From contig CATBDC010000023.1 of assembly GCA_949502235.1 (NCBI GenBank), positions 1-54,203 of the forward strand: DNA of 54,203 nucleotides, written 5' to 3'. Shown here one piece after another: positions 2,941-51,140 of the stretch (within the stretch, counting starts at the first letter, position 1; each line of letters starts with the position of its first letter). The notes under the pieces are model-generated. The model saw only the letters and a list, made by a program, of their open reading frames with translations. It was not told the origin of the DNA and searched no databases. A program made the position numbers and the translations under genes. This DNA is from an uncultured Lachnospiraceae bacterium. GTDB lineage: Bacteria; Bacillota; Clostridia; Lachnospirales; Lachnospiraceae.

Positions 2941-2969
2941 AAGTCATAATGGTGGAAAATCTTTATTGT

Positions 2970-3017: not shown

Positions 3018-3199
3018 ATATGATATGAGACAGAAAGTTCAATTTGAAAATCTAAATATATTAACATATTTTAAATTTATTAATTGTAAATAGGTTTGTA
3101 TATAGTCGAATAAAAACAAAAAAATATGGTAAATATGCACAAAAATTAGAATTAATAATTGTATAATATGTAGAAAATAAAGATACGTAAAATATTGTG

Positions 3200-3250: not shown

Positions 3251-3293
3251 TAAAAGATAACCAAGAATTGTATGGCGACTGGAGCTGCGCGGT

Positions 3294-34252: not shown

Positions 34253-34298
34253 GTTACTGTTCACTACTGTTCACATGCGCAGACCTGTAAACAGTAAT
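34253..34298 (-). repeat. Palindromic repeat family, partial copy
   Basis: On the minus strand it runs from ATTACTGTTTACAGGTCTGCGCAT to GTGAACAGTAAC. The first part matches 23 bases at 50736-50758. The central hairpin module is missing. A further fragment (CACTGTTCACTTTGTTCACAG) lies at 34352-34372 beyond the terminator. The 231-base gap from 34149 to 34379 is otherwise explained by promoter and terminator. Confidence 0.7.
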
Positions 34299-34316
34299 TA
34301 AAATGTGCACAGGCAT

Positions 34317-34340
34317 AGAAAAAACCGGGTAATCCCGGTT
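34317..34340 (-). terminator. Terminator of YjfB gene
   Basis: Perfect stem AACCGGG (34323-34329) and CCCGGTT (34334-34340) around TAAT. Read on the minus strand it is followed by a run of T, so it ends the YjfB transcript. Confidence 0.75.
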
Positions 34341-34379
34341 CTTTCTATCTCACTGTTCACTTTGTTCACAGCAGCCTTT

Positions 34380-34556
34380 CTATGCCATAATATCAATATT
34401 TTCCCCAAGTCCCGGTACGGACACGGCGTCCGCCATCTGCGCAAGCGCTTCCCCGGCGGCTTCTGCCGTATCAAGTATCTTAGACATCACGGCAATGTCC
34501 ACATTCATGCTCAAATTATTCATGGCCATATAGGTCGATAATGCTGGTATATCCAT
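34380..34556 (-). CDS. YjfB-family small protein
   Basis: A 58-residue protein of the YjfB family (putative motility protein domain), with the family pattern MDIPALS near the start, a middle amphipathic helix and VPGLGENIDIMA at the end. AGAGGTGAT precedes this ATG; an in-frame GTG nine bases earlier lies within the ribosome site. Function is unknown; relatives are common as single genes in Clostridia and Bacilli. Confidence 0.75.
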   Translation of the reverse strand: MDIPALSTYMAMNNLSMNVDIAVMSKILDTAEAAGEALAQMADAVSVPGLGENIDIMA

Positions 34557-34594
34557 ATAAATCACCTCTTTAAATTTCCTTTAAGCTTAGTTTA

Positions 34595-34712
34595 GCAAAC
34601 TGCGGCAAAGTTTGCAAGGTTAATGTTCACTCTGTTCACAGTAACTTGCGATATACTGTACTGTATGATAATATTGTTACTGTTTACAGAGCTGCGCATT
34701 TACTGCGCAAGG
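34595..34712 (+). repeat. Palindromic repeat family, copy B
   Basis: The module hairpin GCAAACT (34595-34601) with AGTTTGC (34609-34615) is followed by AAGGTTA and the terminal piece ending CAGTAAC at 34645. A second start, GTTACTGTTTACAG at 34676-34689, and a TGCGC-ATTTACT-GCGCA hairpin (34692-34708) follow. This occupies the gap between YjfB and the metallopeptidase gene. Confidence 0.7.
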
Positions 34713-34737
34713 CCATAAGAAAGCAGGAGTGGGTAAA

Positions 34738-35271
34738 ATGAAAGAATATGAATGGATCCGTTCTGGCAGAAAAACGATTGCGATTCAGGTAAAACCAGAC
34801 GGTCGCATTGTGGTCCGTTCACCATACAGAGTATCAAGAAAACAGGTGGAAAGGTTTCTTGAGGAAAAAAGCCAGTGGATAAAAACGCAGCAGGAGAAGT
34901 TAAGAAAGGGGGAGGAGGCTAAGCGTGAGATTACGGATGAGATGCGAAAAAGAGGCGTCCGTATGGCAATGGAGCTTATTCCGGAGAGAGTGCGCTATTA
35001 TGCGGATATCATGGGTATTTCATATGGAAGGATTACAATACGGGAGCAGAAGACGAGATGGGGAAGCTGCAGCAGTAAGGGTAATTTGAACTTTAACTGG
35101 AAGCTTATGCTGATGCCGGAGGGGGTACTCGATTATGTAGTCGTCCATGAGCTGGCACACAGGATTGAGATGAATCATTCGAAAGCGTTCTGGGCAGTTG
35201 TGGAGCAGGTGCTGCCGGACTACCGGAAAAGAAAGGCCCTTCTTAGAGAGACGGAGCAGCTTTACCGTTAG
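34738..35271 (+). CDS. YgjP-like (M48/DUF45) metallopeptidase-domain protein
   Basis: A 178-residue protein with the DUF45 layout: an N-terminal strand-rich part (RIVVRSPYRVS), a basic helix, the motif TRWGSCSSKGNLNFNW, and the zinc site VVVHELAHRIEMNHSKAFW (HExxH). ATG 34738 follows AGGAG; an in-frame GTG at 34729 lies nearer that site and is less likely. Substrate is unknown; in many genomes it neighbours restriction genes, but not here. Confidence 0.87.
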   Translation: MKEYEWIRSGRKTIAIQVKPDGRIVVRSPYRVSRKQVERFLEEKSQWIKTQQEKLRKGEEAKREITDEMRKRGVRMAMELIPERVRYYADIMGISYGRITIREQKTRWGSCSSKGNLNFNWKLMLMPEGVLDYVVVHELAHRIEMNHSKAFWAVVEQVLPDYRKRKALLRETEQLYR

Positions 35272-35305
35272 CCATAAAATATTCAGCTTGTTTGGTTGGA
35301 AGGTT

Positions 35306-35345
35306 GTTCGAGGGACGGACATCTTCGAGATTCCGTCCCTTGAAC
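35306..35345. repeat. Short palindrome related to the 515-base inverted repeat
   Basis: GTTCGAGGGACGG (35306-35318) pairs with CCGTCCCTTGAAC (35333-35345), one mismatch. The left arm matches the left end of the element at 41504-41516, and 35317-35344 matches 41992-42019 at 26 of 28 bases. It lies between two converging genes and may act as a bidirectional terminator. It looks like an internally deleted copy of the larger element. Confidence 0.7.
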
Positions 35346-35374
35346 GATATTTCCACCACACAGGCAGAAAAGCT

Positions 35375-36052
35375 TTATAAAAGCATAGAAAGAAGTACGG
35401 TTATGATGCCGCATATACCGATAGCCAGCCCGCTCATTGCCCCTTCAGTTTCTCCTATTTCCAGGGCCTTTGAGGTGCCGATGGCATGGCTTGAGGCTCC
35501 GATGGCCAGTCCGGCGGTCATGGAATCCTTTACACAGAACAGCTTAATGAGAAGAGGGGACAGGATGCTTCCAAGTATTCCCGTAAAAATAACGGCAACA
35601 ACAGTAACCGGAACGACTCCGCCGCGGCTCTCCGAGATGCTGACCGCAATGGGAGTGGTGACAGATTTGGGAAGCAGGGATGCTGTCATAGCATCATCAA
35701 GCCCGAAAAACCGGCATAATCCGTAAACGCTTAGCATAGAAGCAGCAGATCCGCAAAAGCAGCCCGTAAGGATAGGAAGCCAGTTTTCCTTCAAAATGCG
35801 GATTTTGGCGTAAATGGACACCGCAAGGCATGCCGTTGCCGGAGCCAGGAACATATTTATAATACTCCCTCCCTCCTGGTAAGCCTCATAAGGAATCTTA
35901 AATAGCAGTAAAATTCCGATAATTATGACAATTGCAATAATCAGCGGGTTTAAGAGGAGAAGTCCTGTCTTTTTGTTGAGCATCTGTCCGCACCAGAAGG
36001 CGAAAATGCTTAGGGCAATGCCGAAAAACGGCGATTCAAATATCTCTGACAT
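35375..36052 (-). CDS. lrgB: LrgB/CidB-family membrane protein
   Basis: A 225-residue protein with about six to seven hydrophobic spans and the family segment LLPKSVTTPIAVSISE, then GLAIGASSHAIGTSKALE. In staphylococci LrgAB and CidAB affect murein hydrolase activity; in other bacteria relatives export organic acids such as glycolate or pyruvate. Here it is one base after lrgA. Which role applies cannot be told from the sequence. Confidence 0.92.
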   Translation of the reverse strand: MSEIFESPFFGIALSIFAFWCGQMLNKKTGLLLLNPLIIAIVIIIGILLLFKIPYEAYQEGGSIINMFLAPATACLAVSIYAKIRILKENWLPILTGCFCGSAASMLSVYGLCRFFGLDDAMTASLLPKSVTTPIAVSISESRGGVVPVTVVAVIFTGILGSILSPLLIKLFCVKDSMTAGLAIGASSHAIGTSKALEIGETEGAMSGLAIGICGIITVLLSMLL

Positions 36053-36053
36053 A

Positions 36054-36410
36054 TTATTTCCTCCGATTGATGAATTTTATAGTAAGTCTGATGCTGAATG
36101 CAGTAGCGGCAAAGGTAATCAGTGTTGAAAGGACGCAGATCACCACAAGAGAGAACCAGTTTTCTTTTAATATATCAAAATAGTTCATCATTCCCACCCC
36201 CGCAGGTATAAAGAAAAATGCCATGTTGGATAAAAGAAAATCCGATTTTTCCTGTATATGGCTGACTTTAAGCAGTCCGGTAAGAAGACAGAGAAGGAGA
36301 AGAAGCAGTCCGATTACACTTGAAGGAAATGGAAAAGGGAGGATCTGCTGAATAATAATGCTAAGCCAGCAGATTGTAAAAATAATGCCTGTTTGTTTTA
36401 TAATTTTCAT
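36054..36410 (-). CDS. lrgA: LrgA/CidA-family membrane protein
   Basis: A 118-residue holin-like protein with four hydrophobic spans and the family pattern LPFPFPSSVIGLLLL, then FFFIPAGVGMM. The ATG at 36410 is used; a GTG nine bases upstream is directly next to the AAAGGAT ribosome site. It is the first gene of the lrgAB pair. Confidence 0.9.
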   Translation of the reverse strand: MKIIKQTGIIFTICWLSIIIQQILPFPFPSSVIGLLLLLLCLLTGLLKVSHIQEKSDFLLSNMAFFFIPAGVGMMNYFDILKENWFSLVVICVLSTLITFAATAFSIRLTIKFINRRK

Positions 36411-36494
36411 ATCGTACACATCCTTTAACCGGAAATATTCAGTGAATTAACAGTTTTTAGCATACTACGGCATGAAAATAAAGTCAATATGATT

Positions 36495-36673
36495 GTTACT
36501 GTGAACGGAGTAGACAGTAACAACAACGTTACTGTTCACACGGCACCGTGCACTACGCTGCACGGTGTCCGGCCAAAAAAAGTAGTGGCTGCCTGGCATC
36601 CGGCCCCTCACCGAAGGTGACTTTTAATGGCTGGATGCCGTTACTGGAGCACCCGTAGGGTGTGAACAGTAAC
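36495..36673 (+). repeat. Palindromic repeat family, copy C (largest)
   Basis: A short hairpin unit (36495-36521) is followed by a 146-base element with perfect 14-base inverted ends, GTTACTGTTCACAC (36528-36541) and GTGTGAACAGTAAC (36660-36673). Inside are a hairpin of GCACCGTGCA with TGCACGGTGT, and an outer stem 36595-36605 with 36629-36639. An inner TCACC-GAA-GGTGA lies within the outer stem. It fills most of the 347-base gap before yjbQ; no strong promoter for yjbQ was found in the remaining 84 bases. Confidence 0.8.
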
Positions 36674-36757
36674 ACAACAACTAGAATAGGGCTGTATTAT
36701 TTTTGGGATATATGTTAAAATAGTCACGAAGTTTTAAGAAGATTAGGAGAAAAGATT

Positions 36758-37174
36758 ATGAAATCGTATCGAAAGGAACTACATTTTCATCTGCCCGCAA
36801 GACGGGGGCTGGTTAATATTACGGATGAGGTGCAGCAGGCAGTCAGGGAAAGCAAAGTAAAGGAAGGAATGGTACTTGTTAATGCCATGAACATTACGGC
36901 CAGTGTTTTCATTAATGATGATGAGAGCGGACTGCATCAGGACTATGAAAAATGGCTGGAGCATCTTGCACCGGAGAAGCCTTACAGCCAGTACAGGCAT
37001 AATGGATATGAGGATAATGCAGATGCGCATCTAAAGAGAACCATCATGGGACGGGAGACTGTTGTGGCAATCACAGATGGAAAGCTGGATTTCGGAACAT
37101 GGGAGCAGATTTTTTATTTTGAATTTGATGGGAAAAGAGACAAGAGAGTACTAATTAAGATAATCGGAGAATAG
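36758..37174 (+). CDS. YjbQ-family (UPF0047) protein
   Basis: A 138-residue protein of the UPF0047/YjbQ family. It has the strand pattern ending [10 protein letters not shown], the conserved [20 protein letters not shown] and [13 protein letters not shown]. Some relatives show weak thiamine-phosphate synthase activity, but the true role is unknown. AGGAGAAAAGATT precedes the ATG. A stand-alone gene. Confidence 0.85.
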
Positions 37175-37245
37175 GGTGTGTCTTGAGATAATCACTGGAA
37201 AGTGGTAATATATATAAAAGAAAATATTACAGGAGGAGACGTTCT

Positions 37246-39102
37246 ATGCAAATTCCTATTGAATCTTATAACAAGGAGTATAAAGACCGCTTTTTAAAAT
37301 ACTATGATGAATTTAAGTGGCTGTACCACGAGCTGTACAGCGGCCGTACAGATATGTTTGAAAGCCTGTGTGACGAGATGTTCCGTTGGTATAAGGAGAG
37401 AAGGCCGCAGCTAAAAAAGATAGACGCGGGCCGTGAGGAGAATCCGGACTGGTACAAAGGAAACCAGATGCTGGGCATGATGATGTATGTGGATGCTTTT
37501 GCCGGGGATCTTAAGGGAGTCTTAAAGAAGCTGGATTATATTGAAGAATGTAACGTAAATTACCTTCATCTGATGCCCCTTCTTGATTCGCCGGAGGGAA
37601 GAAGCGATGGCGGCTACGCGGTTTCAGATTTCAGGAAGGTGAAGCCGGAGCTTGGGACAATGGAAGATTTGGAAAGGCTTGCTGATGAGTGTCACAAACG
37701 GGGAATCAGTATTTGCCTGGACTTTGTTATGAACCATACCTCTGAGGATCATGAATGGGCAAAAAGAGCAAGGCAGGGGGATCCGGAGTACAAGAGCAGA
37801 TATTATTTTTATGATAATTATGATATTCCGGCCCAGTTTGAGCAGACTATGCCAGAGGTATTTCCTACTACGGCACCGGGAAATTTCTCCTGGCTTCCGG
37901 ATATGGAGCAGTTTATTATGACCACCTTTTATCCGTACCAGTGGGATCTTAATTACTGGAATCCGGTTGTGTTAAATGAGATGATTTATAATATGCTGAA
38001 TCTGGTAAATAAGGGTATTGACATTATCAGAATCGATGCAGTTCCTTATATCTGGAAGCAGCTTGGCACGAACTGCAGGAATCTTCCCCAGGTACACAAT
38101 ATTGTGCGGATTATGAGAATTATCACGGAGATCGTATGTCCGGGCGTACTTCTTCTGGGAGAGGTTGTTATGGCGCCGGATAAGGTAGTGCCTTACTTTG
38201 GAAGTGTTGAGAAGCCGGAATGTCATATGCTTTACAATGTTACGACAATGGCCACCACCTGGCACAGCGTGGCAACAAGGGATGCCATGCTGTTAAAGCA
38301 GCAGATGAACGTGGTAAATACTCTGCCAAAGGATTATGTATTTCTTAATTACCTGCGCTGCCATGATGATATCGGCTGGGGACTTGACTACCTGTGGCTT
38401 ATGCAGTTTGGAATCGGCGAGGTAAGCCACAAACGGTATCTGAATAATTTCCTTACCGGTCAGTATCCTGGCTCCTTTGCAAGAGGAGAGCTTTATAATT
38501 CAGATCCCACGTCAGGAGATGCAAGGCTGTGCGGGACCACGGCATCCCTAAGCGGTATTGAGAAGGCGGCTTATGAGCGGGACAGCGAGGCTCTTGACCG
38601 GGCGGTCCGCCTGGATCTTATGCTTCATGCATATATGCTTGTCCAGTCCGGTATCCCGGTGATTTACAGCGGAGATGAGATTGGGCAGGAAAACGATTAT
38701 ACTTATCATAAGGATCCCAAGAAATGGGATGATTCCCGTTATCTCCACAGAGGGAAATTCCAGTGGGAGAAGGAGAGGATGAAAGAAGAAAAGGGCACGG
38801 TACAGCAGAGAATCTTTGACGGCCTGAAAAAGCTGGAGGCTATCCGCAGGGATAAAAAGGTTTTCTGCGGCGATGCAGATGTCTGGACAGTGGATACATG
38901 GGACAAATCCATTCTGGGCATTGTCCGTGCCAGCGGTGAGGAAAAGCTGGTTGCACTTTTTAATTTCAGCGAATTTGATAAAACGGCCTGGATTAATGAA
39001 GATGACGGTATGTATATGGATCTGATTACAGGACAGGAAATGGAAGCAAAAGGTGTAAATATTCCGGCATACGGCGCATACTGGCTGTACAGAAAGAACT
39101 AA
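37246..39102 (+). CDS. GH13 alpha-glucosidase/amylosucrase-like enzyme
   Basis: A 618-residue GH13 protein, closest in layout to the amylosucrase group (subfamily 4): a helical N-terminal domain of about 75 residues, then the barrel. Region II IIRIDAVPY holds the nucleophile Asp264, region III LLGEVV the acid/base Glu306, and region IV CHDDIGW Asp374. No signal peptide. It probably cleaves or transfers glucose from sucrose or alpha-glucans inside the cell; which reaction is undecided. AGGAGG precedes the ATG. Confidence 0.85.
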   Translation: MQIPIESYNKEYKDRFLKYYDEFKWLYHELYSGRTDMFESLCDEMFRWYKERRPQLKKIDAGREENPDWYKGNQMLGMMMYVDAFAGDLKGVLKKLDYIEECNVNYLHLMPLLDSPEGRSDGGYAVSDFRKVKPELGTMEDLERLADECHKRGISICLDFVMNHTSEDHEWAKRARQGDPEYKSRYYFYDNYDIPAQFEQTMPEVFPTTAPGNFSWLPDMEQFIMTTFYPYQWDLNYWNPVVLNEMIYNMLNLVNKGIDIIRIDAVPYIWKQLGTNCRNLPQVHNIVRIMRIITEIVCPGVLLLGEVVMAPDKVVPYFGSVEKPECHMLYNVTTMATTWHSVATRDAMLLKQQMNVVNTLPKDYVFLNYLRCHDDIGWGLDYLWLMQFGIGEVSHKRYLNNFLTGQYPGSFARGELYNSDPTSGDARLCGTTASLSGIEKAAYERDSEALDRAVRLDLMLHAYMLVQSGIPVIYSGDEIGQENDYTYHKDPKKWDDSRYLHRGKFQWEKERMKEEKGTVQQRIFDGLKKLEAIRRDKKVFCGDADVWTVDTWDKSILGIVRASGEEKLVALFNFSEFDKTAWINEDDGMYMDLITGQEMEAKGVNIPAYGAYWLYRKN

Positions 39103-39105
39103 GTC

Positions 39106-40032
39106 ATGAAGTATTATCTTGCGCCGATGGAGGGCATTACTACTTACATTTACCGAAATGCATATCATCAGTATTTTACACCCCTGGATAAGTATTTCAC
39201 TCCCTTTCTTGTGCCTCATACAAAAAAAGGCTTTAGCACAAAGGAGTTAAAGGAGATTCTCCCGGAGAATAACGAGGGAATATATCTCGTACCCCAGATT
39301 TTAAGTAATGATGCAGAAGGATTTCTCTCTACAGTAAAGAAGCTTCAGAAATTCGGATACAGGGAGGTAAACCTGAACCTTGGATGCCCGTCTAAGACGG
39401 TTGTATCAAAATACCGCGGCTCCGGCTTTCTTGCAAAGCCGGAAAAGCTGGAGGAATTTCTTGACAGAATCTATAGTGAAGCAGAAACAGAGATATCTAT
39501 AAAGACCAGAATTGGCAGAGATTCACCGGAGGAATTTGAAAGGCTTCTTAAAATTTATAACAAATATCCGGTAAAAGAACTGATTATTCATCCGCGGGTG
39601 CAGAAGGATTTTTATAAAAATGTACCGAATCTCTCCGTATTTGCCGAAGCGGTGAAGGAAAGCAGAAATCCCCTCTGCTATAACGGAGACATTTTCCATG
39701 CTTCGGACTGTCACAAAATGTCAGAACGCTTTCCAGAGGTTCCTGCAGTCATGCTTGGGCGGGGGATTATCGGAAATCCGGGGCTTTTAGGGGAGATAAA
39801 GGGGGAAGGAACGGCTGGCGCAGAAAGGCTTTGTGCCTTCCACGACAAGATACTTAGGGATTACAGAGCGCTTAACTTCGGGGATAAAAATGTACTGTTT
39901 AAAATGAAGGAAATATGGTGCTATCTGGGAGGACTTTTCCCGGAGGAAGAAAAGAAGCTTAAAAAACTGAAGAAGGCAGAACGGATGGCTGACTATGAAC
40001 GTGCGGCCGGTGAGCTTTTTGCCCTGCTATAA
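39106..40032 (+). CDS. tRNA-dihydrouridine synthase
   Basis: A 308-residue FMN enzyme that reduces uridines in tRNA. The barrel opens with YYLAPMEGITTYIYR, followed by NLNLGCPSKTVVSKYRGSGF, ISIKTRIGRDS, LIIHPR and VMLGRGIIGNPGLL, all family landmarks. It starts three bases after the GH13 gene with no good ribosome site, so its translation is probably coupled. The C-terminal region is short and of the usual Firmicutes kind. Confidence 0.9.
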   Translation: MKYYLAPMEGITTYIYRNAYHQYFTPLDKYFTPFLVPHTKKGFSTKELKEILPENNEGIYLVPQILSNDAEGFLSTVKKLQKFGYREVNLNLGCPSKTVVSKYRGSGFLAKPEKLEEFLDRIYSEAETEISIKTRIGRDSPEEFERLLKIYNKYPVKELIIHPRVQKDFYKNVPNLSVFAEAVKESRNPLCYNGDIFHASDCHKMSERFPEVPAVMLGRGIIGNPGLLGEIKGEGTAGAERLCAFHDKILRDYRALNFGDKNVLFKMKEIWCYLGGLFPEEEKKLKKLKKAERMADYERAAGELFALL

Positions 40033-40056
40033 TAAGAGAAAAGGAGATATTTGTAT

Positions 40057-40548
40057 ATGGAAGATCAGAAAAAGCGTGTATATGATGCTTTAGATAAGCT
40101 GAAGATTAAATATGAGGTGGTAGAACATGAGCCGGTTCATACAATGGAGGATATGGACAGGCTGGGCTTGCCGGAGAAAGGAACCTTGTGCAAAAATCTT
40201 TTTTTACGGGATTCTAAGGGGAAGAGACATTTTCTCGTAACATGTGAAGAGGATAAAAAGATAGATCTGAAGGCGCTGGGCAGACAGCTGGGAGGAGGAA
40301 ATCTAAGCTTTGCCTCCGAGGACAGGCTGGAAAAGTATCTTGGACTTAAGCAGGGAAGTGTATCACCCTTTGGACTTATGAATGATACAGACCACGCGGT
40401 AGAGTTTTTTATTGATAAGGATTTAAGCAGATGTAAAAGCCTCGGGATTCATCCATTAGAGAATACGGCAACCGTATTTTTATCCTTTAAGGATCTGGAT
40501 AAATTTTTGTGGGATTTGGATGTGGATGTAGTGAAAATTAAGCTATAG
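40057..40548 (+). CDS. ProX/YbaK-type aminoacyl-tRNA deacylase
   Basis: A 163-residue protein of the YbaK/ProRS-INS family that hydrolyses mischarged tRNA such as Ala-tRNA(Pro). The INS-domain pattern is visible: VVEHEPVHTMEDM, KNLFLRDSKGKRHFLV, and GSVSPFGLMND with ENTATVFLSF near the end. ATG 40057 follows AAAGGAGA; an in-frame TTG at 40051 is less likely. It lies in a close run with the dihydrouridine synthase, two genes of tRNA quality. Confidence 0.88.
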   Translation: MEDQKKRVYDALDKLKIKYEVVEHEPVHTMEDMDRLGLPEKGTLCKNLFLRDSKGKRHFLVTCEEDKKIDLKALGRQLGGGNLSFASEDRLEKYLGLKQGSVSPFGLMNDTDHAVEFFIDKDLSRCKSLGIHPLENTATVFLSFKDLDKFLWDLDVDVVKIKL

Positions 40549-40562
40549 AAAAGAGGGTTTAC

Positions 40563-41489
40563 ATGGAGCAGAGGCAGAGCTACGGAAGGCATATGTGGAG
40601 TATATGGTCTCCTTTACTGATAAAGTTTGGGATTTCCATCATTTTAAGCATGATGTTTGCGTTTGTGCTTATATGGAGATACCTTGCAGGACAGGAAGCA
40701 GCAGGTGACGCACAGGCTCTTGTGCAGTTTATGAATAATGCAGATAAGATGCAGGAGATGTCTGCCCAGGTGCTTAAGTGGGCGGTAGACCTTGCTGTCC
40801 CCATGGAGGGTGCCGCGGCTCTTATTACGATTCCTGTTTTCTTATTCCTGATGCACAGGGATCGGGTAAAGGAAAAAGCAGGCGCAGGGGAGATTTCTGT
40901 CAAGAGGGCACCGTTTTATAAATATCCTTTGATTATAGGAATTTCGGCAGCTATGTGCCTGGGGCTTAATAATCTCATAGTCCTTTCGAACCTATCCTCC
41001 TACAGTACATCCTATGAGGATACGATGGAGATGCTTTACCAGCCTTCCCTTTGGATGCAGATCGTGTGCCTTGGGATACTCATGCCTGTCTGTGAAGAGC
41101 TGGCATACAGGGGGCTGATGTACAGACGTATGCGCATGCAGATGAAATTCCTGCCGGCAGCCCTCTATTCCTCTGTCATATTTGCAATTACCCACGGAAA
41201 TCTGGTGCAGAGCCTGTATGGATTTGCAATGGGGATGATGCTGTCCTATGTTTATGAAAAATATGGCTCTGTTCTGGCGCCTGCGGCAGGGCACATCACG
41301 GCAAATATACTGTCAGTGGCCGGGACATACTTTCACTGGTTTGACTGGATGCTAAAGGAGGGAATCCGCATAGGCGGCGTGACAGTCCTGTGCGCGGCAG
41401 CAGCCTCCGCCATCTATGTCCTGATGCAGAGGATGGAAAACGCATTCCCCGAAACCCTGAAAGCTTCCGGGAGCCATCTGGCCGGATAA
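40563..41489 (+). CDS. CPBP-family intramembrane metalloprotease
   Basis: A 308-residue membrane protein with about eight hydrophobic spans. The CPBP (Abi) motifs are present: CEELAYRG (EExxxR), FAITHGN (FxxxH) and HITANIL (HxxxN/B). Family members cleave or process membrane substrates, and some give self-protection against bacteriocins. No bacteriocin gene is seen nearby. GAGGGTTTAC precedes the ATG. Confidence 0.88.
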   Translation: MEQRQSYGRHMWSIWSPLLIKFGISIILSMMFAFVLIWRYLAGQEAAGDAQALVQFMNNADKMQEMSAQVLKWAVDLAVPMEGAAALITIPVFLFLMHRDRVKEKAGAGEISVKRAPFYKYPLIIGISAAMCLGLNNLIVLSNLSSYSTSYEDTMEMLYQPSLWMQIVCLGILMPVCEELAYRGLMYRRMRMQMKFLPAALYSSVIFAITHGNLVQSLYGFAMGMMLSYVYEKYGSVLAPAAGHITANILSVAGTYFHWFDWMLKEGIRIGGVTVLCAAAASAIYVLMQRMENAFPETLKASGSHLAG

Positions 41490-41504
41490 AGGGTGGGTGT
41501 CTTG

Positions 41505-42019: not shown

Positions 42020-42051
42020 TTTATTTCAGCTATTCAGGCAGAAATTTTTTG

Positions 42052-42120
42052 TTTACAATTGGGGATAAATGTTGTATAGTAAGTAGAAATAAGATTGCTG
42101 TGAACGGAGTGAACAGTATC
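42052..42120 (+). promoter_or_regulatory. gltB promoter and leader palindrome
   Basis: TTTACA (42052-42057), 17 bases, TATAGT (42075-42080). In the leader, a unit of the GTTACTG family (TGCTGTGAAC-GGA-GTGAACAGTA, 42097-42118) would form a hairpin about ten bases after the start of transcription. The promoter lies 33 bases from the end of the large inverted repeat. Confidence 0.6.
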
Positions 42121-42147
42121 GAAATAAGGAAAGGGCAGGGAAGTACT

Positions 42148-45100: not shown

Positions 45101-46683
45101 ACGATATTTATTCCATAGAGGATCTGGCACAGCTGATATATGACTGCAAAAACGCAAATAAGGACGCAAGAATATCTGTAAAGCTGGTATCAGAAGCAGG
45201 AGTTGGAACCGTTGCTGCCGGTGTGGCAAAGGCCGGAGCCGGGCTTATCCTGATTTCCGGCTATGACGGCGGTACGGGAGCAGCCCCCAGAAGCTCTATC
45301 CACAATGCGGGCCTTCCGTGGGAGCTGGGCCTTGCGGAAACTCATCAGACGCTGCTTCAGAACGGCCTTAGAGAGCGCGTGCGTCTTGAGACAGACGGAA
45401 AGCTTATGACCGGACGGGATGTAGCTATTGCCGCTATTTTGGGTGCTGAGGAATTTGGATTTGCCACAGCCCCTCTTGTGACTCTTGGATGTGTGATGAT
45501 GCGTGTCTGCAATCTGGACACCTGCCCTGTGGGGGTAGCGACCCAGAATCCGAAGCTTAGGGAGCGTTTTGCAGGAAAACCAGAGTATGTCATGAACTTT
45601 ATGAGATTTATTGCGCAGAATTTAAGAGAATATATGGCAAGGCTGGGAGTCCGCACGATTGATGAGCTGGTAGGAAGGACAGAGCTTTTGCGAGTAAAAG
45701 AGGCGCCGGTCTCTAAGCGGGCGGCCACGCTTAAGCTGGAACAGATTCTTCACAATCCATATGAGGGGACCAGAACCCCTGTCACCTGTAACCCGAAAAA
45801 GCTGTTCGATTTTGAACTGGAAAAGACACTGGATGAGCGTGTTCTTGTAAAGAGGCTTCTTCCGGCTCTCTTAAAGGGGGAGAAGAAAAGCATAGAGGTG
45901 GATGTATCGAATACAGACCGGACCTTCGGGACGATGTTCGGTTCTGAAATTACGAGGAGATATCCGGAGGGACTTCCGGAAGACAGCTATGTGGTGAAAT
46001 GTAAAGGTGCAGGAGGGCAGTCTTACGGGGCGTTTATACCAAAGGGACTTACACTGGAGCTTGTGGGGGACAGCAATGATTATTTCGGCAAAGGCCTCTC
46101 GGGAGGAAAGCTTATTGTTTATCCGCCCAAGAACGTAAGATACAGGCATGATGAAAATATTATTATCGGAAATGTGGCGCTTTACGGGGCAACCAGCGGA
46201 AAAGCCTTTATTAACGGGGTGGCAGGAGAGCGTTTTGCTGTCCGCAATTCCGGCGCGGCTGCTGTTGTAGAAGGAGTCGGCGATCACGGCTGTGAATATA
46301 TGACAGGAGGCCGTGTGGCTGTTCTTGGAAGAACCGGGAAGAATTTCGCGGCGGGCATGAGCGGAGGAGTTGCCTATGTACTCGATATGGACAGTGATTT
46401 ATATATGAATGTAAATAAACAGCTTGTAAATATAGAGCGTGTGGCTTCAAAGTTTGAGGTGAATGAATTAAAGAGCATGATTGAAGAGCATGTTGCCTGC
46501 ACCGATTCAGAAAAGGGAAAAGAAATTCTTGACAATTTTACAGAATATCTGCCCAGGTTTAAGAAGATTATTCCGAAGGACTATGAACGGATGCTCACTA
46601 CAATCCTGCAGCTTGAGGAGCAGGGGATGAGCAGCGGGCAGGCACAGACAGAAGCGTTCTACGCAATCAAGGAAGGAAGATAG
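42148..46683 (+). CDS. gltB: Glutamate synthase large subunit
   Basis: A 1511-residue enzyme that makes two glutamates from glutamine and 2-oxoglutarate. The class II glutaminase domain begins at Cys22 (HDNCGIGAV) after a 21-residue propeptide that must be removed. The central and FMN domains include the long loop KPGEGGHLPGGKV and GYDGGTGAAPRSS. The 3Fe-4S site is around CNLDTCPVGVATQ, and the C-terminal beta-helix has repeated GG/AV turns. ATG 42148 is taken because homologues begin just before the Cys; the frame extends 33 codons upstream across the promoter. Confidence 0.95.
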   Translation: MNDSCRRGFPGLYRPGFEHDNCGIGAVVNIKGKKSHDTVADALKIVENLEHRAGKDAEGKTGDGVGILLQISHRFFSKVCEPLGILLGSERDYGVGMFFFPQEELKRNQAKNIFEVIVKKEGMKFLGWREVPVKKEVLGSRALACMPCIMQGFIGRQETVKRGLDFDRRLYVVRRIFEQSSDDTYVASLSSRTIAYKGMFLVEQLRSFFEDLQDPDYESAIALVHSRFSTNTNPSWERAHPNRFIVHNGEINTIRGNADKMQAREENMESEYLKGELHKVLPVINSSGSDSAMLDNAIEFMVMSGMELPLAVMIAIPEPWANTKNMSQKKKDFYQYYATMMEPWDGPASILFSDGDCMGAVLDRNGLRPSRYYITDKDTLILSSEVGVLDIPPESIIVKERLHPGKMLLVDTVRGKVIDDDELKEMYAGRQPYGEWLDSNLIRLKDLKIPNQKVVSYTKEECQRLQKAFGYSYEEVKTSILNMAENGTEGTASMGIDTPLAVLSDKHQNLFGYFKQLFAQVTNPPIDAIREEIVTSTAVYIGADGNLLEEKAENCKMLKCSNPILTNTDLLKIKNMKEDGFKTAEIPITYYKNSSLEKAMEHLFIEVDRVIRTGANILILSDRGVDEYHVAMPSLLALSGLQQHLIRTKKRTSVAVILETGEPREVHHFATLLGYGACAVNPYLVYESIRQLIDTDMLKKDYYAAVDDYNHAVLSGIVKIASKMGISTIQSYQGAKIFEAVGLKEEFIRKYFTDTVSRVGGIGTEEIARDYMARHLQAFDPLGLETDLTLDSIGQHKSKSGGEKHLYNPRTIHMLQQSARNGDYGMFKQYADMVDEEGAHMNLRGQLEFQYPKKGIPVEAVESVDEIVTRFKTGAMSYGSISKEAHETLAIAMNRLHGKSNSGEGGEEIERLETDRCSAIKQVASGRFGVTSRYLVSAKEIQIKMAQGAKPGEGGHLPGGKVYPWIAKTRHSTPGVSLISPPPHHDIYSIEDLAQLIYDCKNANKDARISVKLVSEAGVGTVAAGVAKAGAGLILISGYDGGTGAAPRSSIHNAGLPWELGLAETHQTLLQNGLRERVRLETDGKLMTGRDVAIAAILGAEEFGFATAPLVTLGCVMMRVCNLDTCPVGVATQNPKLRERFAGKPEYVMNFMRFIAQNLREYMARLGVRTIDELVGRTELLRVKEAPVSKRAATLKLEQILHNPYEGTRTPVTCNPKKLFDFELEKTLDERVLVKRLLPALLKGEKKSIEVDVSNTDRTFGTMFGSEITRRYPEGLPEDSYVVKCKGAGGQSYGAFIPKGLTLELVGDSNDYFGKGLSGGKLIVYPPKNVRYRHDENIIIGNVALYGATSGKAFINGVAGERFAVRNSGAAAVVEGVGDHGCEYMTGGRVAVLGRTGKNFAAGMSGGVAYVLDMDSDLYMNVNKQLVNIERVASKFEVNELKSMIEEHVACTDSEKGKEILDNFTEYLPRFKKIIPKDYERMLTTILQLEEQGMSSGQAQTEAFYAIKEGR

Positions 46684-46695
46684 GAGGTGTTGAAA

Positions 46696-48204
46696 TTGGG
46701 AAAGGCAACAGGATTCATGGATTATAAAAGACAGGATAAGGAGGCACAAGATCCTCAAAAACGAATTTCGCATTTTCAGGAATTTCATACGCCGCTTTCC
46801 AGGGAGGAGCAAGAGCGCCAGGGCGCCAGATGTATGTCCTGCGGCGTTCCGTTCTGCCAGGCAGGCCAGATGATTATGGGTATGGCAAGCGGATGCCCGC
46901 TCCACAATCTGGTGCCGGAGTGGAATGATCTTATTTATCACGGTAATTGGGAGGAGGCATACTACCGGTTAAAGAAGACAAATAATTTTCCGGAGTTTAC
47001 CGCACGTGTATGTCCGGCGCTGTGCGAGGCGGCATGTACCTGCAGCCTCCACGGAGATGCTGTGACAACTAAGGCAAATGAGTATGGGATTATAGAAAAT
47101 GCCTATGAGAAGGGCTATGCCGCCGCAAAGCCGGTGAAGGTGCGTACAGGAAAAAAGGCGGCGGTTGTAGGTTCAGGCCCTTCCGGGCTTGCTGCGGCAG
47201 ATGTGTTAAACCGCAGGGGGCATTTGGTGACCGTGTTTGAGCGTGAGGATAAGCCCGGCGGGCTTTTGCGCTATGGAATTCCTAATATGAAGCTTGAAAA
47301 GCAGATTATTGACAGGAAGATATCTATTATGGAGGAGGAAGGAATTACCTTTGTTACCGGGTGCAACGTAGGAAAGGACAGAAAGGCTTCTTCCTTATTA
47401 AAAGAGTTTGACTGTGTGATTCTCTGCTGCGGCGCATCGAATCCAAGAGATATTAAGGTGCCTGGCAGAGAAGCAGAAGGGATTTATTTTGCCGTAGATT
47501 TCCTTAAATCTACAACGAAGGCTCTCTGGCAGCACCAGATGGAGCTTAAGGAAGGAAGCTTTATAAGCGCAAAGGGAAAGCATGTGATGGTAATCGGAGG
47601 GGGCGATACGGGAAATGACTGTGTGGGAACTGCCATTCGTCACGGGGCAAAATCAGTACTGCAGGTAGAAATGATGCCAGAATTACCAAAAAAGCGGGCG
47701 GAGAATAACCCGTGGCCGGAGTGGCCGAAGGTATTAAAGACAGACTATGGTCAGGAGGAGGCAAAAGCTGTTTTCGGCCGGGATCCCCGCGTGTATGAAA
47801 CAACAGTAAAGGAATTCATAAAGGATAAAAACGGGCGGATATGCAAAGCAGTGCTGGTGAAGCTTACGCCGAAAAAAGATGAAAAAACAGGGCGCATGAT
47901 TATGGCAGAGGAGGCAGGGAGTGAATATACTGTTCAGACGGATCTTGTTCTGATAGCGGCAGGCTTTCTTGGGAGCGAGGCTTATGTTACAAAGGCGTTT
48001 GGAGTAGGTGTAAATGAAAGATCTAATGTTGCCACAGAGGAGGGAGGATATATGACAAGTGTAAAGAGGGTATTTACTGCCGGGGACATGCACAGAGGGC
48101 AGTCTCTTGTTGTATGGGCAATCCGTGAAGGACGGGAGGCGGCCCGCGAAGTGGATATGAGCCTGATGGGCTATACGAATCTTAACAGCTACTGTGAACA
48201 GTAA
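46696..48204 (+). CDS. gltD: Glutamate synthase small subunit
   Basis: A 502-residue NADPH-dependent subunit that passes electrons to GltB. It has two cysteine clusters for 4Fe-4S centres (CMSCGVPFCQ and CPALCEAACTC), a FAD motif (VVGSGPSGLAAA) and an NADPH motif (VIGGGDTGNDCVG). The likely start is TTG 46696: it gives MGKATGFMDYKR, the usual opening, and has GGAGG eight bases upstream. An earlier GTG at 46687 lies within the ribosome site. The last four codons and stop (YCEQ-TAA) lie inside a palindromic repeat. Confidence 0.93.
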   Translation: MGKATGFMDYKRQDKEAQDPQKRISHFQEFHTPLSREEQERQGARCMSCGVPFCQAGQMIMGMASGCPLHNLVPEWNDLIYHGNWEEAYYRLKKTNNFPEFTARVCPALCEAACTCSLHGDAVTTKANEYGIIENAYEKGYAAAKPVKVRTGKKAAVVGSGPSGLAAADVLNRRGHLVTVFEREDKPGGLLRYGIPNMKLEKQIIDRKISIMEEEGITFVTGCNVGKDRKASSLLKEFDCVILCCGASNPRDIKVPGREAEGIYFAVDFLKSTTKALWQHQMELKEGSFISAKGKHVMVIGGGDTGNDCVGTAIRHGAKSVLQVEMMPELPKKRAENNPWPEWPKVLKTDYGQEEAKAVFGRDPRVYETTVKEFIKDKNGRICKAVLVKLTPKKDEKTGRMIMAEEAGSEYTVQTDLVLIAAGFLGSEAYVTKAFGVGVNERSNVATEEGGYMTSVKRVFTAGDMHRGQSLVVWAIREGREAAREVDMSLMGYTNLNSYCEQ

Positions 48205-48205
48205 C
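48189..48205. repeat. Palindromic repeat unit overlapping gltD stop
   Basis: CTACTGTGAACAGTAAC is a short member of the GTTACTG/CAGTAAC family. It encodes the C-terminal YCEQ and the stop codon of gltD. Confidence 0.6.
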
Positions 48206-48257
48206 AAACAGTAAATATAAAAGTAAATATAAAATGTTACAAAAATGTTAAAATATG

Positions 48258-48286
48258 TTGCAAAAATATGCCTGCTCATGTATAAT
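48258..48286 (+). promoter_or_regulatory. Promoter of first NlpC/P60 gene
   Basis: TTGCAA (48258-48263), 17 bases, TATAAT (48281-48286), with TG just before the -10 box. It leaves a leader of about 80 bases. Confidence 0.7.
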
Positions 48287-48373
48287 CAATCTAGATGTGG
48301 GGTATAGAAGGGGTAACTATGTCATAATCTAGCTGGATATGACGAAAAATAGTTAATAGAAGGAAGATTAGAT

Positions 48374-49438
48374 ATGAAGAAATTTGGCAGAATTGTATTT
48401 GCCGCTGCACTTGCAGGTACAATGATGGTAACCCCGGTTATGGCAGCACCAGAGGTTGGTGAGCTTGAGCAGGAAAAACAGGCGGCACAGGAAAGTGTGG
48501 ATGCCCTAAAAGCCCAGCTTACGGAAACAATAGGAAAAATCAGCCAGCTTGAGAAGAATCTGGTTGACAAGGGAAAAGAAGTAATTCAGGCAAAGGAGGA
48601 TCTGGCCCAGGCCGAAGAGACAGAAAAAAAGCAGTATGATGATATGAAGCTCCGTATCCGCTTCCTGTATGAGCAGGGGGATAGAAGCCTTTTGGAAGCT
48701 ATTATGACTGCAGAGAGCTTTACGGATCTTGTAAATAAGGCAGAATACATACAAAATGTTCATAGCTACGACAGGCAGAAATTAGAAGATTATATTGAAG
48801 CGAGACAGAATGTTTATGTACTTAAAACTGCCCTTGAGGAAGAGCAGAAGAGTATGGAGGCCATGAAGGCGGATTTTGAGGCAGAGGAAAATCACCTGAA
48901 TGAGATGATTGCATCAAAACAGGCAGAGGTAGAAAATATCGGAGAACTTCTTAAGGAAGCGCTTGCAGAGGTGACAAGGCAGCAGGCGGGCGGTACTCCC
49001 GGCGGAGCGCAGGGAAATGGCGGCGGTGCTTCGGAGGAGGGAGCAGCAGGCGGCGGCACGGCAGGCGGCGGTTTTACGAATCCGGTTTACAGCGGTACAG
49101 GTGACACCTCACTTGCCCAGATGATTGTCAATGCGGCATATAATCAGCTCGGAGTTCCGTATGTCTGGGGTGGAGCCAGTCCATCGGGCTTTGACTGTTC
49201 CGGTCTGGTTATGTACTGCCACAGTGCGGCAGGCGTCTCACTAGATCATTATTCGGAATCACAGGGGGCCGGCGGAGCTGTAAGTGACCCGCAGCCGGGC
49301 GATGTCGTGTATTATCCGGGACACGTAGGTATTTATATCGGAAACGGCCAGATGATTCATGCACCGCAGGAAAATGATGTGGTAAAGATATCGAATGTTT
49401 ATGATGTCGGCACACCGACCTTTGTGCGTTATTGGTAA
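48374..49438 (+). CDS. Secreted NlpC/P60 peptidoglycan hydrolase 1
   Basis: A 354-residue exported protein. A signal peptide (residues 1-24, ending VMAAP) is followed by a long coiled coil (about 28-200, rich in E, K, Q), a Gly/Ala-rich linker (205-240), and a C-terminal NlpC/P60 domain with catalytic Cys in FDCSGLV and His in PGHVGIYIG and MIHAP. It resembles PcsB/CwlO-type enzymes that cleave peptide stems during growth or division and are activated by FtsEX; that partnership is inferred from the layout. A close paralogue follows. Confidence 0.9.
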   Translation: MKKFGRIVFAAALAGTMMVTPVMAAPEVGELEQEKQAAQESVDALKAQLTETIGKISQLEKNLVDKGKEVIQAKEDLAQAEETEKKQYDDMKLRIRFLYEQGDRSLLEAIMTAESFTDLVNKAEYIQNVHSYDRQKLEDYIEARQNVYVLKTALEEEQKSMEAMKADFEAEENHLNEMIASKQAEVENIGELLKEALAEVTRQQAGGTPGGAQGNGGGASEEGAAGGGTAGGGFTNPVYSGTGDTSLAQMIVNAAYNQLGVPYVWGGASPSGFDCSGLVMYCHSAAGVSLDHYSESQGAGGAVSDPQPGDVVYYPGHVGIYIGNGQMIHAPQENDVVKISNVYDVGTPTFVRYW

Positions 49439-49463
49439 AAATATGGTAATTTGAAAAAAAACA

Positions 49464-49492
49464 TTGAAATCAATCGAAAGTTGTAGTATCCT
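49464..49492 (+). promoter_or_regulatory. Promoter of second NlpC/P60 gene
   Basis: TTGAAA (49464-49469), 17 bases, TATCCT (49487-49492), giving a leader of about 85 bases. Both paralogues thus have separate promoters. Confidence 0.55.
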
Positions 49493-49586
49493 AGTTATGC
49501 ACGTGGGAGTAAGGCTGCATAGTTTTGAGGGAGAAGTATCATGTAGCTTTTGACTGATGAATAATTAAGTAAGGATGGGTGAGATT

Positions 49587-50675
49587 ATGAAGAGACGACT
49601 GGTAAGAGCGCTCATTGCATCTGTTGTGATGAGTTCTTTGATGATAACGACTGTTTCGGCAACGCCGTCAGTAGACGAGCTGAAGGATAAGAAGGCGGCT
49701 GCAGAGAATGAGGTCAGTGATCTGCAGACAAAGCTTAACACTCTTATGACGAAGATGAACGAGCTTCAGAACCAGCTTATTTCTACTGGTGAGAAGCTGA
49801 TTCAGGCGGAAGAAGATCTGGCTGTGGCAGAGGAAAAGAAGCAGAATCAGTATGAGGACATGAAGCTCCGTATTAAATACATGTACGAGGAAGGCAATGG
49901 TTCTGCCCTTGAGAAGGTTGCGTCATCAGGGAGTATAACTGAGCTGCTGAATCAGGTTGAATATGCCCAGAAGGTGCATACATATGACAGGAACATGCTT
50001 CATGAATATGAAGATACTGTGCAGGAGGTAGAAGATATCAAGACGGGTCTTGAAGAAAAGAAGACAGAGCTTGAAAGCCTTCAGGTAGAGTATGAAGCAC
50101 AGTCACAGGAGCTGAATACAACAATTGAAGAAAAAAGTGATGAGATAGAGAATCTTGATGGAATGATTCAGGAGGCTGTGGCAGCTGCGTTAGAGGCAGA
50201 GCGCAAGCGCCAGGAAGAGGAGCAGCGCAGGCAGGAGGAAGCGGCAGCACAGCAGCAACAGCAGAATCAGAACCAGAATACAGTAACTCCGTCTAATCCA
50301 TCATATTCCGGCGGAGGCGGCGGAAATGACAGTTATGTAGAACCTCCGTATAGTGCAGTTACGGGAAACGCTGTTGTTGACCGTGCATGGGGTTGTATCG
50401 GGCTTCCTTATGTGTGGGGGGCAACAGGACCGGGCTCCTTTGACTGTTCCGGTCTGGTGGGGTATTGTCTGACAGGCGGTTATGGACGTCTCGGTACGAC
50501 ATATACCTTCATGACATGGCCGCAGGTAAGTGATCCGCAGCCGGGTGATGTATGTACGAACTGGGATCATTGCGGTATTTATATCGGAGGCGGTCAGATG
50601 ATTCATGCTCCGCAGCCAGGAGAAAGTGTTAAGGTTGGACCGGTGCAGGGCGGTATGATTTATGTACGTTATTAA
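49587..50675 (+). CDS. Secreted NlpC/P60 peptidoglycan hydrolase 2
   Basis: A 362-residue paralogue with the same layout: signal peptide (to about residue 23, VSATP), coiled coil (26-205), a Gln-rich low-complexity stretch (QRRQEEAAAQQQQQNQNQN), a Gly-rich linker, then the NlpC/P60 domain with Cys in FDCSGLVGYC and His in WDHCGIYIG. The linker is quite different from the first copy, while coiled coil and catalytic domain align well. ATG 49587 follows AAGGATGGG. Confidence 0.9.
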   Translation: MKRRLVRALIASVVMSSLMITTVSATPSVDELKDKKAAAENEVSDLQTKLNTLMTKMNELQNQLISTGEKLIQAEEDLAVAEEKKQNQYEDMKLRIKYMYEEGNGSALEKVASSGSITELLNQVEYAQKVHTYDRNMLHEYEDTVQEVEDIKTGLEEKKTELESLQVEYEAQSQELNTTIEEKSDEIENLDGMIQEAVAAALEAERKRQEEEQRRQEEAAAQQQQQNQNQNTVTPSNPSYSGGGGGNDSYVEPPYSAVTGNAVVDRAWGCIGLPYVWGATGPGSFDCSGLVGYCLTGGYGRLGTTYTFMTWPQVSDPQPGDVCTNWDHCGIYIGGGQMIHAPQPGESVKVGPVQGGMIYVRY

Positions 50676-50697
50676 ATTTTATAGAAAGTAACAAAAA

Positions 50698-50723
50698 AGA
50701 GCTGTATATACAGCTCTTTTTTT
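50698..50723 (+). terminator. Terminator after second NlpC/P60 gene
   Basis: A 20-base perfect palindrome (AGAGCTGTAT then ATACAGCTCT, 50698-50717) followed by a run of eight T. Confidence 0.9.
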
Positions 50724-50734
50724 GCTTATTATTC

Positions 50735-50867
50735 GTTACTGTTTACAGGTCTGCGCATTTACTATGCCAGACCGTAAGAAAGTGATTCAGGAGTGAGCAA
50801 ATCCCATTGCCGAAAGCAATTTTAAATGGATTTGCGAAGGTTACTGTGAACGGGAGTGAACAGTAAC
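50735..50867 (+). repeat. Palindromic repeat family, copy F
   Basis: It begins GTTACTGTTTACAG (50735-50748) and ends with a GTTACTGT...ACAGTAAC hairpin (50840-50867). Between them a GGTCTG...CAGACC hairpin (50747-50772) and an outer stem GCAAATCC (50797-50804) with GGATTTGC (50828-50835) enclose ATTGC-CGAAA-GCAAT (50806-50820). The layout equals copy C although the stem bases differ. It ends 39 bases before the rpsB promoter. Confidence 0.8.
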
Positions 50868-50906
50868 GGGCAGTCCTTTTTTAACAAAATTTTACTCCCA
50901 AAATCC

Positions 50907-50935
50907 TTGTATTTCCTGCGTTTCTATGCTATACT
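50907..50935 (+). promoter_or_regulatory. rpsB-tsf promoter
   Basis: TTGTAT (50907-50912), 17 bases, TATACT (50930-50935) with a TG two bases before the -10 box. Transcription would begin near 50942 and the leader would be about 200 bases, containing repeat copy G. Confidence 0.7.
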
Positions 50936-50972
50936 ATCACCGTTGTGAAAAAACAGCAACAAAAAACACGCA

Positions 50973-51073
50973 TGCCGGATTCCGGCAGGTGCCTAAGTCT
51001 GCAAAAATTCCACTGCCGAAGGCAATTTAAGATGAATTTTTGCATGTTATTGTGAGCAAAGTGAGCAGTAACA
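50973..51073 (+). repeat. Palindromic repeat family, copy G, in rpsB leader
   Basis: Three consecutive structures: TGCCGG-ATT-CCGGCA (50973-50987); an 11-pair stem TGCAAAAATTC (51000-51010) with GAATTTTTGCA (51034-51044) enclosing TGCC-GAA-GGCA (51014-51024); and a terminal GTTATTG...CAGTAAC hairpin (51047-51072). It would be transcribed as part of the rpsB message and could also act in control of ribosomal protein S2; that is inference. Confidence 0.75.
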
Positions 51074-51140
51074 TATATAGACCGGTTTCGGGAGAGAATT
51101 TCAGTGTGCGGAAGACTAAAACCAAATGGAGGAAAGAAAC

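What the first reader, a model, noticed from the sequence alone, without database searches (positions are those of the whole stretch)
34253..51073. Dispersed palindromic repeat family with conserved multi-hairpin layout and changing stems
At least four larger copies (34595-34712, 36528-36673, 50735-50867, 50973-51073) and several single units (34253-34298, 34352-34372, 36495-36521, 42097-42118, 48189-48205) share GTTACTG/CAGTAAC ends. In copies C, F and G a middle outer stem encloses a small hairpin with loop CCGAA or similar, then a T/A-rich link. The outer stem is GGCATCCGGCC, GCAAATCC or TGCAAAAATTC in the three copies, each with its complement kept (copy B has GCAAACT with AGTTTGC). Complementary change across copies points to selection for structure, in RNA or single-stranded DNA. 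I know of no named family that fits. All copies lie between genes or at gene ends, at 34-51 kb.
Basis: partly seen in the sequence, partly recalled or inferred. Interest (0 to 1): 0.8.

Follow-up and report, generated by a model that had tools for sequence, protein, structure and literature searches.

The report
Hairpin-rich IS66-type miniature transposons in Lachnospiraceae
The scattered hairpin repeats are copies of a small gene-less jumping element, probably moved by IS66-type transposases, that occurs in several gut bacteria of the Lachnospiraceae and keeps its folded layout while its sequence changes.

Summary
The repeats are real, but they are mobile DNA rather than a dispersed RNA gene family. 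The full unit is about 130-150 bp: a 12-bp terminal inverted repeat (GTTACTGTTCAC), a 10-bp hairpin, a conserved linker, a long stem enclosing a small hairpin, and a right-end palindrome. The window's genome has at least 137 covariance-model matches. Many copies are bracketed by 8-bp target duplications; in the window 34349-34375, 36528-36673 and 42094-42120 (8 of 8 bases) and 34253-34298 (7 of 8). A single-ORF IS66-family clade, with two partial copies in this genome, carries the same tip. So this is an IS66-type MITE.

Compensatory stem changes are real, but individual copies show no sign of purifying selection on stems and no clear strand bias in mismatches. The fold therefore seems to belong to the source elements; selection during transposition or hairpin template-switching could keep it.

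Corrections: "copy G" takes in part of the rpsB leader; its true repeat (about 51000-51072) sits inside that leader and is absent from same-genus relatives. "Copy B" is two opposed fragments. Solo 27-bp palindromes often carry duplications too and are probably deletion remnants. I found no name for it.

The parts
34253..34298 (+). 46-bp short element between terminal repeats, duplication TAAAATG[C/T]
   Evidence: 7 of 8 flanking bases match
34349..34375 (-). 27-bp solo terminal-palindrome unit (diverged), duplication CTTTCTAT
   Evidence: 8 of 8 flanking bases match; its ends were too diverged for the count
34595..34645 (-). reversed right-half fragment (outer stem GCAAACT/AGTTTGC plus right-end palindrome)
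   Evidence: no duplication
34676..34740 (+). left-end fragment (terminal repeat, first hairpin, start of linker) running to a gene start
   Evidence: C23:34676-34763, E 0.0036
36495..36521 (+). solo terminal-palindrome unit without a recognisable duplication
36520..36527 (.). left copy of target duplication ACAACAAC
36528..36673 (+). full element, second sequence subfamily (first stem CACCGTGCA, outer stem GGCATCCGGCC)
36674..36681 (.). right copy of target duplication ACAACAAC
42086..42093 (.). left copy of target duplication GAAATAAG
42094..42120 (+). 27-bp solo terminal-palindrome unit
   Evidence: 8 of 8 flanking bases match
42121..42128 (.). right copy of target duplication GAAATAAG
48188..48205 (+). 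terminal-repeat fragment that forms the last codons and the stop of ORF 46687-48204
   Evidence: no duplication
50735..50867 (+). full element, main subfamily
   Evidence: (146.6 bits); no duplication
50748..50773 (+). first hairpin of that element (imperfect here)
50797..50835 (+). central stem GCAAATCC/GGATTTGC enclosing the small GAA-loop hairpin
50840..50867 (+). right-end palindrome with tandem GA/GA mismatches
51000..51072 (+). 5'-truncated copy (central stem plus right-end palindrome) inside the rpsB leader
   Evidence: no duplication

Best explanation
A family of non-autonomous DNA transposons (MITEs), moved in trans by IS66-family DDE transposases of the single-ORF (ISBst12-like) type. 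The transposase would recognise the end GTTACTGTTCAC(AGGT), cut the element out or copy it, and insert it with an 8-bp target duplication. Shown: terminal repeats, 8-bp duplications, high copy number, an IS66 clade with the same tip in this and related genomes, and absence of the window's two rpsB-side copies from same-genus relatives. Inferred: that this transposase moves the MITE, that the solo 27-bp units arise by deletion between the two GTTACTGT direct repeats of a full element, and that insertions in genes are lost by selection. The hairpin layout belongs to the source (master) elements. I think it is kept during propagation, by selection on a single-strand phase, by template-switch correction of hairpins, or by both; these are not resolved. 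Copies decay after insertion.
For: Duplications: 160 places bracketed by matching flanks (at most 1 of 8 differs) in all loci held, with peaks at 25-29 bp (38) and 130-149 bp (85), against a shifted-flank rate of 85 of 109,865; of 98 at 100-165 bp, 93 group with the family and 5 unrelated singletons were dropped. Solo units: 26 of 62 have at most 1 of 8 flanking mismatches against 1 of 496 shifted comparisons; 36 of 62 have at most 2, the rest 5 or more. Copies: 137 model matches. Parent tip: own IS66 partial copies end GTTAC(T/A)GTTCACAGGT, the first 16 bases of the main MITE consensus, with one substitution in one copy; a complete relative has GTTACTGTTCAG at both ends; by a mechanical rule 9 of 13 loci of this clade carry the tip against 2 of 16 other IS66 loci; ISGst1 ends GTAACTATTCA[G/C] at both ends with duplication AAAAGAAC. 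Intergenic: among own duplication-bracketed insertions with enough flank, 26 of 27 full and 6 of 6 solo lie outside ORFs (the exception is one of the dropped singletons), while 112 of 132 nearby control positions lie inside. rpsB side: G005, G004 and G002 have the leader without the insert, and the model finds no copy in the fetched rpsB loci (gene plus 1.5-kb flanks where held) of G005, G004, G002 and G001.
Against: No complete parent with both tips and a duplication was found in this genome: one own copy is cut off beside recombinase genes, the other runs off a contig. At E 1e-20 the own IS66 protein has relatives in only 2 of 61 genomes, own included; with a four-protein profile at E 1e-25 the MITE-rich G003 and G008 have no match and G002 only a partial one. 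The complete relative in G011 lacks matching flanks, and G011 (67% complete) has no MITE match. The MITE and parent share only about 16 bp. 26 of 62 solo units and six of the ten window units tested have no recognisable duplication. No transposition was observed.
Confidence: 0.82

Rival explanations
1. A structured RNA family (regulator or processing signal) whose fold is selected at each site; the terminal repeats are only its basal stem.
For: Strong folding z-scores of the full copies; covarying stems; linker and apical loops conserved while stems change; G.T exceeds A.C in the right-end hairpin (18 v 7, p 0.04) and in low-scoring copies (94 v 59, p 0.006).
Against: 8-bp duplications. Stem columns are no more conserved than unpaired ones and most stem pairs with a rare variant are broken. 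Over the 54 best distinct copies G.T and A.C do not differ clearly (35 v 22, p 0.11; 17 v 15 outside the right-end hairpin). The structure folds similarly well on both strands. Many copies are truncated.
Confidence: 0.06
2. REP-like palindromes spread by a Y1 (RAYT/IS200-IS605) transposase acting on single-stranded hairpins.
For: Palindromic intergenic units, some solo, at high copy number.
Against: Y1 enzymes leave no 8-bp duplication (recalled); duplications are clear for full and solo units. Terminal repeats match IS66 tips. I did not search for Y1 transposases.
Confidence: 0.03
3. Same MITE, but the compensatory changes are a by-product of hairpin template-switching during replication, with no selection on the fold.
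For: Template switching can create and maintain perfect stems (PMC8794818; abstract, start of the text and outline seen). No selection is visible on copies. Sequence-different subfamilies keep well-paired arms.
Against: It does not by itself explain conserved loop types: 63 of 85 inner loops are GNA, the first-hairpin loops are mostly 5-nt and end in RC, and the right-end palindrome keeps GA/GA mismatches that template-switching would be expected to erase (41 of 50 listed sites, counted by reading; one of them overlaps another).
Confidence: 0.4
4. The 27-bp solo units are independently mobile minimal elements rather than deletion remnants.
For: Own 8-bp duplications.
Against: Their left arm mostly reads GTTACTGTGAAC, as after a deletion between the GTTACTGT direct repeats of the full element, not the outer tip GTTACTGTTCAC. 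Other internal deletions at short repeats are seen (L252, L254).
Confidence: 0.2

Closest known systems
IS66 family, single-ORF ISBst12-like group (ISGst1 on Geobacillus plasmid pGS18)
   Same: Tip GTTACT-like or GTAACT-like, 8-bp duplication, single transposase ORF; the group name ISBst12 is recalled
   Different: The MITE has no transposase ORF and shares only the tip; the linker was not found in 11 IS66 loci, and the right-end palindrome is not seen in the ends printed
bcr1 of the Bacillus cereus group
   Same: Dispersed structured bacterial repeat; details recalled, only a search listing was seen
   Different: Different sequence and host; a different duplication is recalled
QMITE2 of Coxiella (as reviewed in PMC10969869)
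   Same: MITE with 7-9 bp direct repeats, a 113-145 bp core and stable predicted folding (passages seen)
   Different: Other terminal repeats (23-29 bp) and other host
REP palindromes (GTAG/CGTC superfamilies, PMC3733652)
   Same: Short palindromes at high copy number (start of abstract seen)
   Different: The terms GTTACTG, Lachnospir, Blautia, Clostridi and Firmicutes do not occur in its held main text; ours has terminal repeats and duplications

Membership tests
MITE | short, no coding capacity for a transposase | tested here: met
   full elements are 100-165 bp by selection, mostly 130-149, too short for a transposase
MITE | terminal inverted repeats | tested here: met
   GTTACTGTTCAC..GTGAACAGTAAC
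MITE | target-site duplications | tested here: met
   8 bp; not on every copy
MITE | high copy number, mainly intergenic | tested here: met
   137 matches; 32 of 32 family insertions with duplications outside ORFs
MITE | mobilised in trans by a related transposase | not testable with these tools
   needs a transposition assay
IS66-derived element | tip shared with an IS66 transposon | tested here: met
   16 bp with the own IS66 partial copies; 9 of 13 clade loci v 2 of 16 others
IS66-derived element | 8-bp duplication as made by IS66 | tested here: met
   ISGst1 AAAAGAAC, a classic IS66 in G002 with ACCCTACC (L198), MITE copies; that 8 bp is general for IS66 is recalled
IS66-derived element | complete autonomous parent in the same genome | tested here: not met
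   only partial copies found; the assembly is in 101 contigs
REP/RAYT | no target duplication | tested here: not met
   8-bp duplications
REP/RAYT | Y1 transposase in the genome flanked by the palindromes | not tested
   no search made
IS256 or IS6 MITE (also 8-bp duplications) | matching transposase in MITE-bearing genomes | tested here: not met
   PF00872 0 of 1 genome (own only); PF13610 2 of 6 genomes (G005, G018), none in the MITE-rich G000, G002, G003 or G008
Rfam RNA family | match to a curated model | tested here: not met
   0 matches at gathering in the window; 0 at E up to 1 in 50700-51150 only

The most novel reading that the evidence does not exclude
The fold itself is the selected, heritable feature of this transposon. 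The + strand must fold as single-stranded DNA (or RNA), with GNA triloops, a tandem G.A right-end hairpin and a first hairpin with a constrained loop, for the IS66 transposase or a host factor to move it. If so, a DDE transposon lineage has swapped its stem sequences several times while keeping its shape.
Probability: 0.25. Interest if true: 0.65.

Novelty: new member of a known kind. Interest (0 to 1): 0.4.

Why it matters
It assigns a likely parent to a repeat that is abundant in some gut Lachnospiraceae, with relatives in records titled Blautia wexlerae and Kineothrix alysoides. It may explain some contig breaks in such assemblies. It is also a cautionary case: strong compensatory covariation in a transposon need not mean a functional RNA at each site. 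The set of copies, with several stem variants on one layout, makes the question of why hairpins persist in MITEs testable.

Tried and rejected
IS256 (PF00872, own genome only), IS6 (PF13610, 6 genomes) and other IS66 elements as parents: no matching tip in the MITE-rich genomes (in one search two of 16 other IS66 loci have a tip-like match of 2 mismatches). ISL3, IS1595 and Y1 families were considered but not searched. Plasmid search with a consensus: nothing. Phage collection: 9 unannotated human-fecal contigs, not followed further. IS66 protein in plasmids: 31 records, all under 60% identity, only ISGst1 looked at. Viral contigs with the IS66 protein: no relative. An exact palindrome with a fixed 8-nt spacer: 0 matches, because the spacing was wrong. 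Strand-bias test for RNA-level selection: 35 G.T v 22 A.C, p 0.11, in the 54 best distinct copies; the right-end hairpin, which also holds the terminal repeat, gives 18 v 7 (p 0.04); the low-scoring copies give 94 v 59 (p 0.006) but are poorly aligned and fitted to the model, so I do not rely on them. The conserved linker was not found in 11 IS66 loci; two hits in L188 are weak and lie in other genes. GA/GA counts over all loci (185 of 249) are inflated because the pattern fixed those bases. The null for duplications includes clustered repeats. The solo class may include units attached to subfamilies its rule does not know. The stem list keeps only perfectly paired stems by construction. In one search, 12 of the loci brought plus L195 were used (L191 and L224 overlap others), and some of the 16 other IS66 loci overlap each other.

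Literature, all from a library without most subscription journals: tip sequence (0 papers), MITE+Lachnospiraceae, IS66+MITE, ISBst12, MITE+Clostridium, IS66/MITEs (12 of 107 listed), Blautia+MITEs. None of the titles, abstract starts or passages seen names this family; I ran term searches in PMC9769881, PMC3189936, PMC3733652, PMC2267715 and PMC10969869 and saw the outline of PMC8794818, and read no paper whole.
Full report
What was checked. The window is one contig (C23) of a 3.78-Mb, 101-contig genome. The tip GTTACTGTTYAC occurs 12 times at up to one mismatch, against 0.20 expected. A palindrome pattern with free bases at the inner positions occurs at 60 places in the genome and 0 times when read backwards. 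BLAST with 50735-50867 gave 45 matches, with only 40 of 260 candidates scored. A covariance model from 25 own-genome copies gave 137 matches at E up to 0.01, with only 150 of 2,502 candidates scored, so this is a lower bound.

Anatomy. On the + strand of the element: left terminal repeat GTTACTGTTCAC; first hairpin, usually 10 bp with a 5-nt loop; linker GTAAGAAAGTGATTCAGGNGTGA; central stem with an inner hairpin; and a right-end palindrome GTTACTGTGAAC-GGA-GTGAACAGTAAC that holds the right terminal repeat. The first stem occurs in many versions, e.g. GGTCTGCGCA, GGACTTTGCA, GTACTTTGCA, GGTCTGTGCA, GGAATGCGCA, GCCGCAAACA, GCATCAAGCA and GCAGCTTAACA (109 sites, 34 stem strings, some of them partial or chance; the script kept only perfectly paired stems). 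Inner loops are GNA in 63 of 85 sites. Such loops are known to stabilise DNA minihairpins (recalled; papers with GCGAAGC were seen only as a listing). Sequence-divergent subfamilies share the layout: BLAST clustering split 98 duplication-bracketed elements into groups of 65, 24, 3 and six singletons, one of the singletons genuine; up to six members of each group were printed and looked at.

It is a transposon. Full copies and solo units are bracketed by 8-bp duplications: in the window ACAACAAC at 36528-36673, GAAATAAG at 42094-42120, CTTTCTAT at 34349-34375, and TAAAATG[C/T] at 34253-34298; six other window units tested have none. Across all loci the size classes 25-29 bp (38) and 130-149 bp (85) stand out of 160. 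Nulls with shifted flanks are 85 of 109,865 and, for solo units at up to 1 mismatch, 1 of 496 against 26 of 62 observed. Own insertions with duplications and enough flank are outside ORFs in 32 of 32 family cases (one further case, inside an ORF, was dropped as unrelated), against 20 of 132 control positions; flanking genes were divergent in 13, co-directional in 18 and convergent in 1. Many other copies are truncated.

Site comparison. Upstream of rpsB, relatives G005, G004 and G002 keep GGTGCCTAAGTCTG followed directly by the rest of the leader, where the window has about 73 bp of a truncated element. This copy has no duplication, consistent with a truncated or rearranged insertion. G003 gave no rpsB match, and G001 and G008 lack the exact leader motif. 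The model finds no copy in the fetched rpsB loci of G005, G004, G002 and G001, and one elsewhere upstream in G008. The spacer that holds 50735-50867 is too diverged for an exact empty site. The name rpsB is my reading of the ORF.

Parent. IS66 (PF03050) matched three places in the genome. Two are partial copies of one element whose end is GTTAC(T/A)GTTCACAGGTTG, sharing 16 bases with the main MITE consensus (one substitution in one copy). Pfam places one protein over and one under the IS66 cut-off (30.2 and 20.2 against 23.1 bits); NCBIfam gives IS66 at 80 and 77 bits, below its whole-protein cut-off of 180, as fragments. A relative in G011 has a 581-aa frame and GTTACTGTTCAG at both ends, 2,207 bp, but without a duplication. 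A gut contig deposited as phage has a 63%-identical transposase with CTGAACAGTAAC behind it. ISGst1 has GTAACTATTCAG..GTGAATAGTTAC with the duplication AAAAGAAC. A profile of these four proteins matched 10 of 116 genomes at E 1e-25. A mechanical count gives the tip in 9 of 13 loci of this clade and 2 of 16 other IS66 loci; two of the four misses (L222, L195) carry the tip but fell outside the counting rule, and one of the nine (L221, GTGAACAGTTTC) may be chance. The name ISBst12-like rests on recall plus the single ORF.

Distribution. 12 of 61 genomes (own included) have the MITE at E 0.001; all 12 are among the 37 of the same family and none among the 24 others, with stricter filters that lose weak matches.

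Structure: selection or not. On 25 copies, 97.1% of cells pair, 10 of 33 pairs change on both sides (47 cells), and slid controls give 0-1; related copies are not independent events. In 47 distinct well-conserved copies, rare variants per column were 0.75 in stems, 0.45 in unpaired columns, 1.42 in the left terminal repeat and 1.06 in the right-end palindrome; of 55 stem pairs with a rare variant (right-end hairpin included) 5 were compensated, 15 still pair and 35 are broken. G.T and A.C mismatches do not differ clearly in the best copies, though the right-end hairpin and the low-scoring copies lean to G.T. So copies do not seem to be held to the fold after insertion, and the covariation arose between source elements. 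Template-switch mutation can do this without selection (PMC8794818, abstract and outline). Conserved loop types and GA/GA mismatches in the right palindrome argue that something more than template-switching acts on the source elements. I leave this open.

The 27-bp units. Their left arm mostly carries GTTACTGTGAAC, as expected if a full element loses everything between its two GTTACTGT repeats; they would keep the duplication of the full insertion. Independent mobility is not excluded.

Verdict.

Noticed in passing
window 50975-51110: The rpsB 5' leader has a motif GGTGCCTAAGTCTG shared exactly with three same-genus relatives, and no Rfam match in 50700-51150; the truncated MITE sits in its apparent hairpin loop. 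It could be a ribosomal-protein leader.
   Followed up: partly
window 48188-48205: A terminal-repeat fragment supplies the last codons and the stop codon of the glutamate-synthase-small-subunit-like ORF 46687-48204 (gene name by my reading, not searched).
   Followed up: no
L188 (G000:C54:1-12000), 175-3383: The own IS66 copy is cut off beside consecutive recombinase-like ORFs; the one tested has a Phage_integrase match.
   Followed up: no
L234 1501-1693: Two left halves fused head to head give a stem of about 23 bp.
   Followed up: no
L010, L011, L020, L235: Several contigs of the assembly end at or within a few hundred bases of MITE copies, so the repeat may break the assembly.
   Followed up: no
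L011 and G003:C4:47227-47630: Neighbouring copies in direct order (equal scores in G003) suggest short tandem arrays.
   Followed up: no
   Followed up: no
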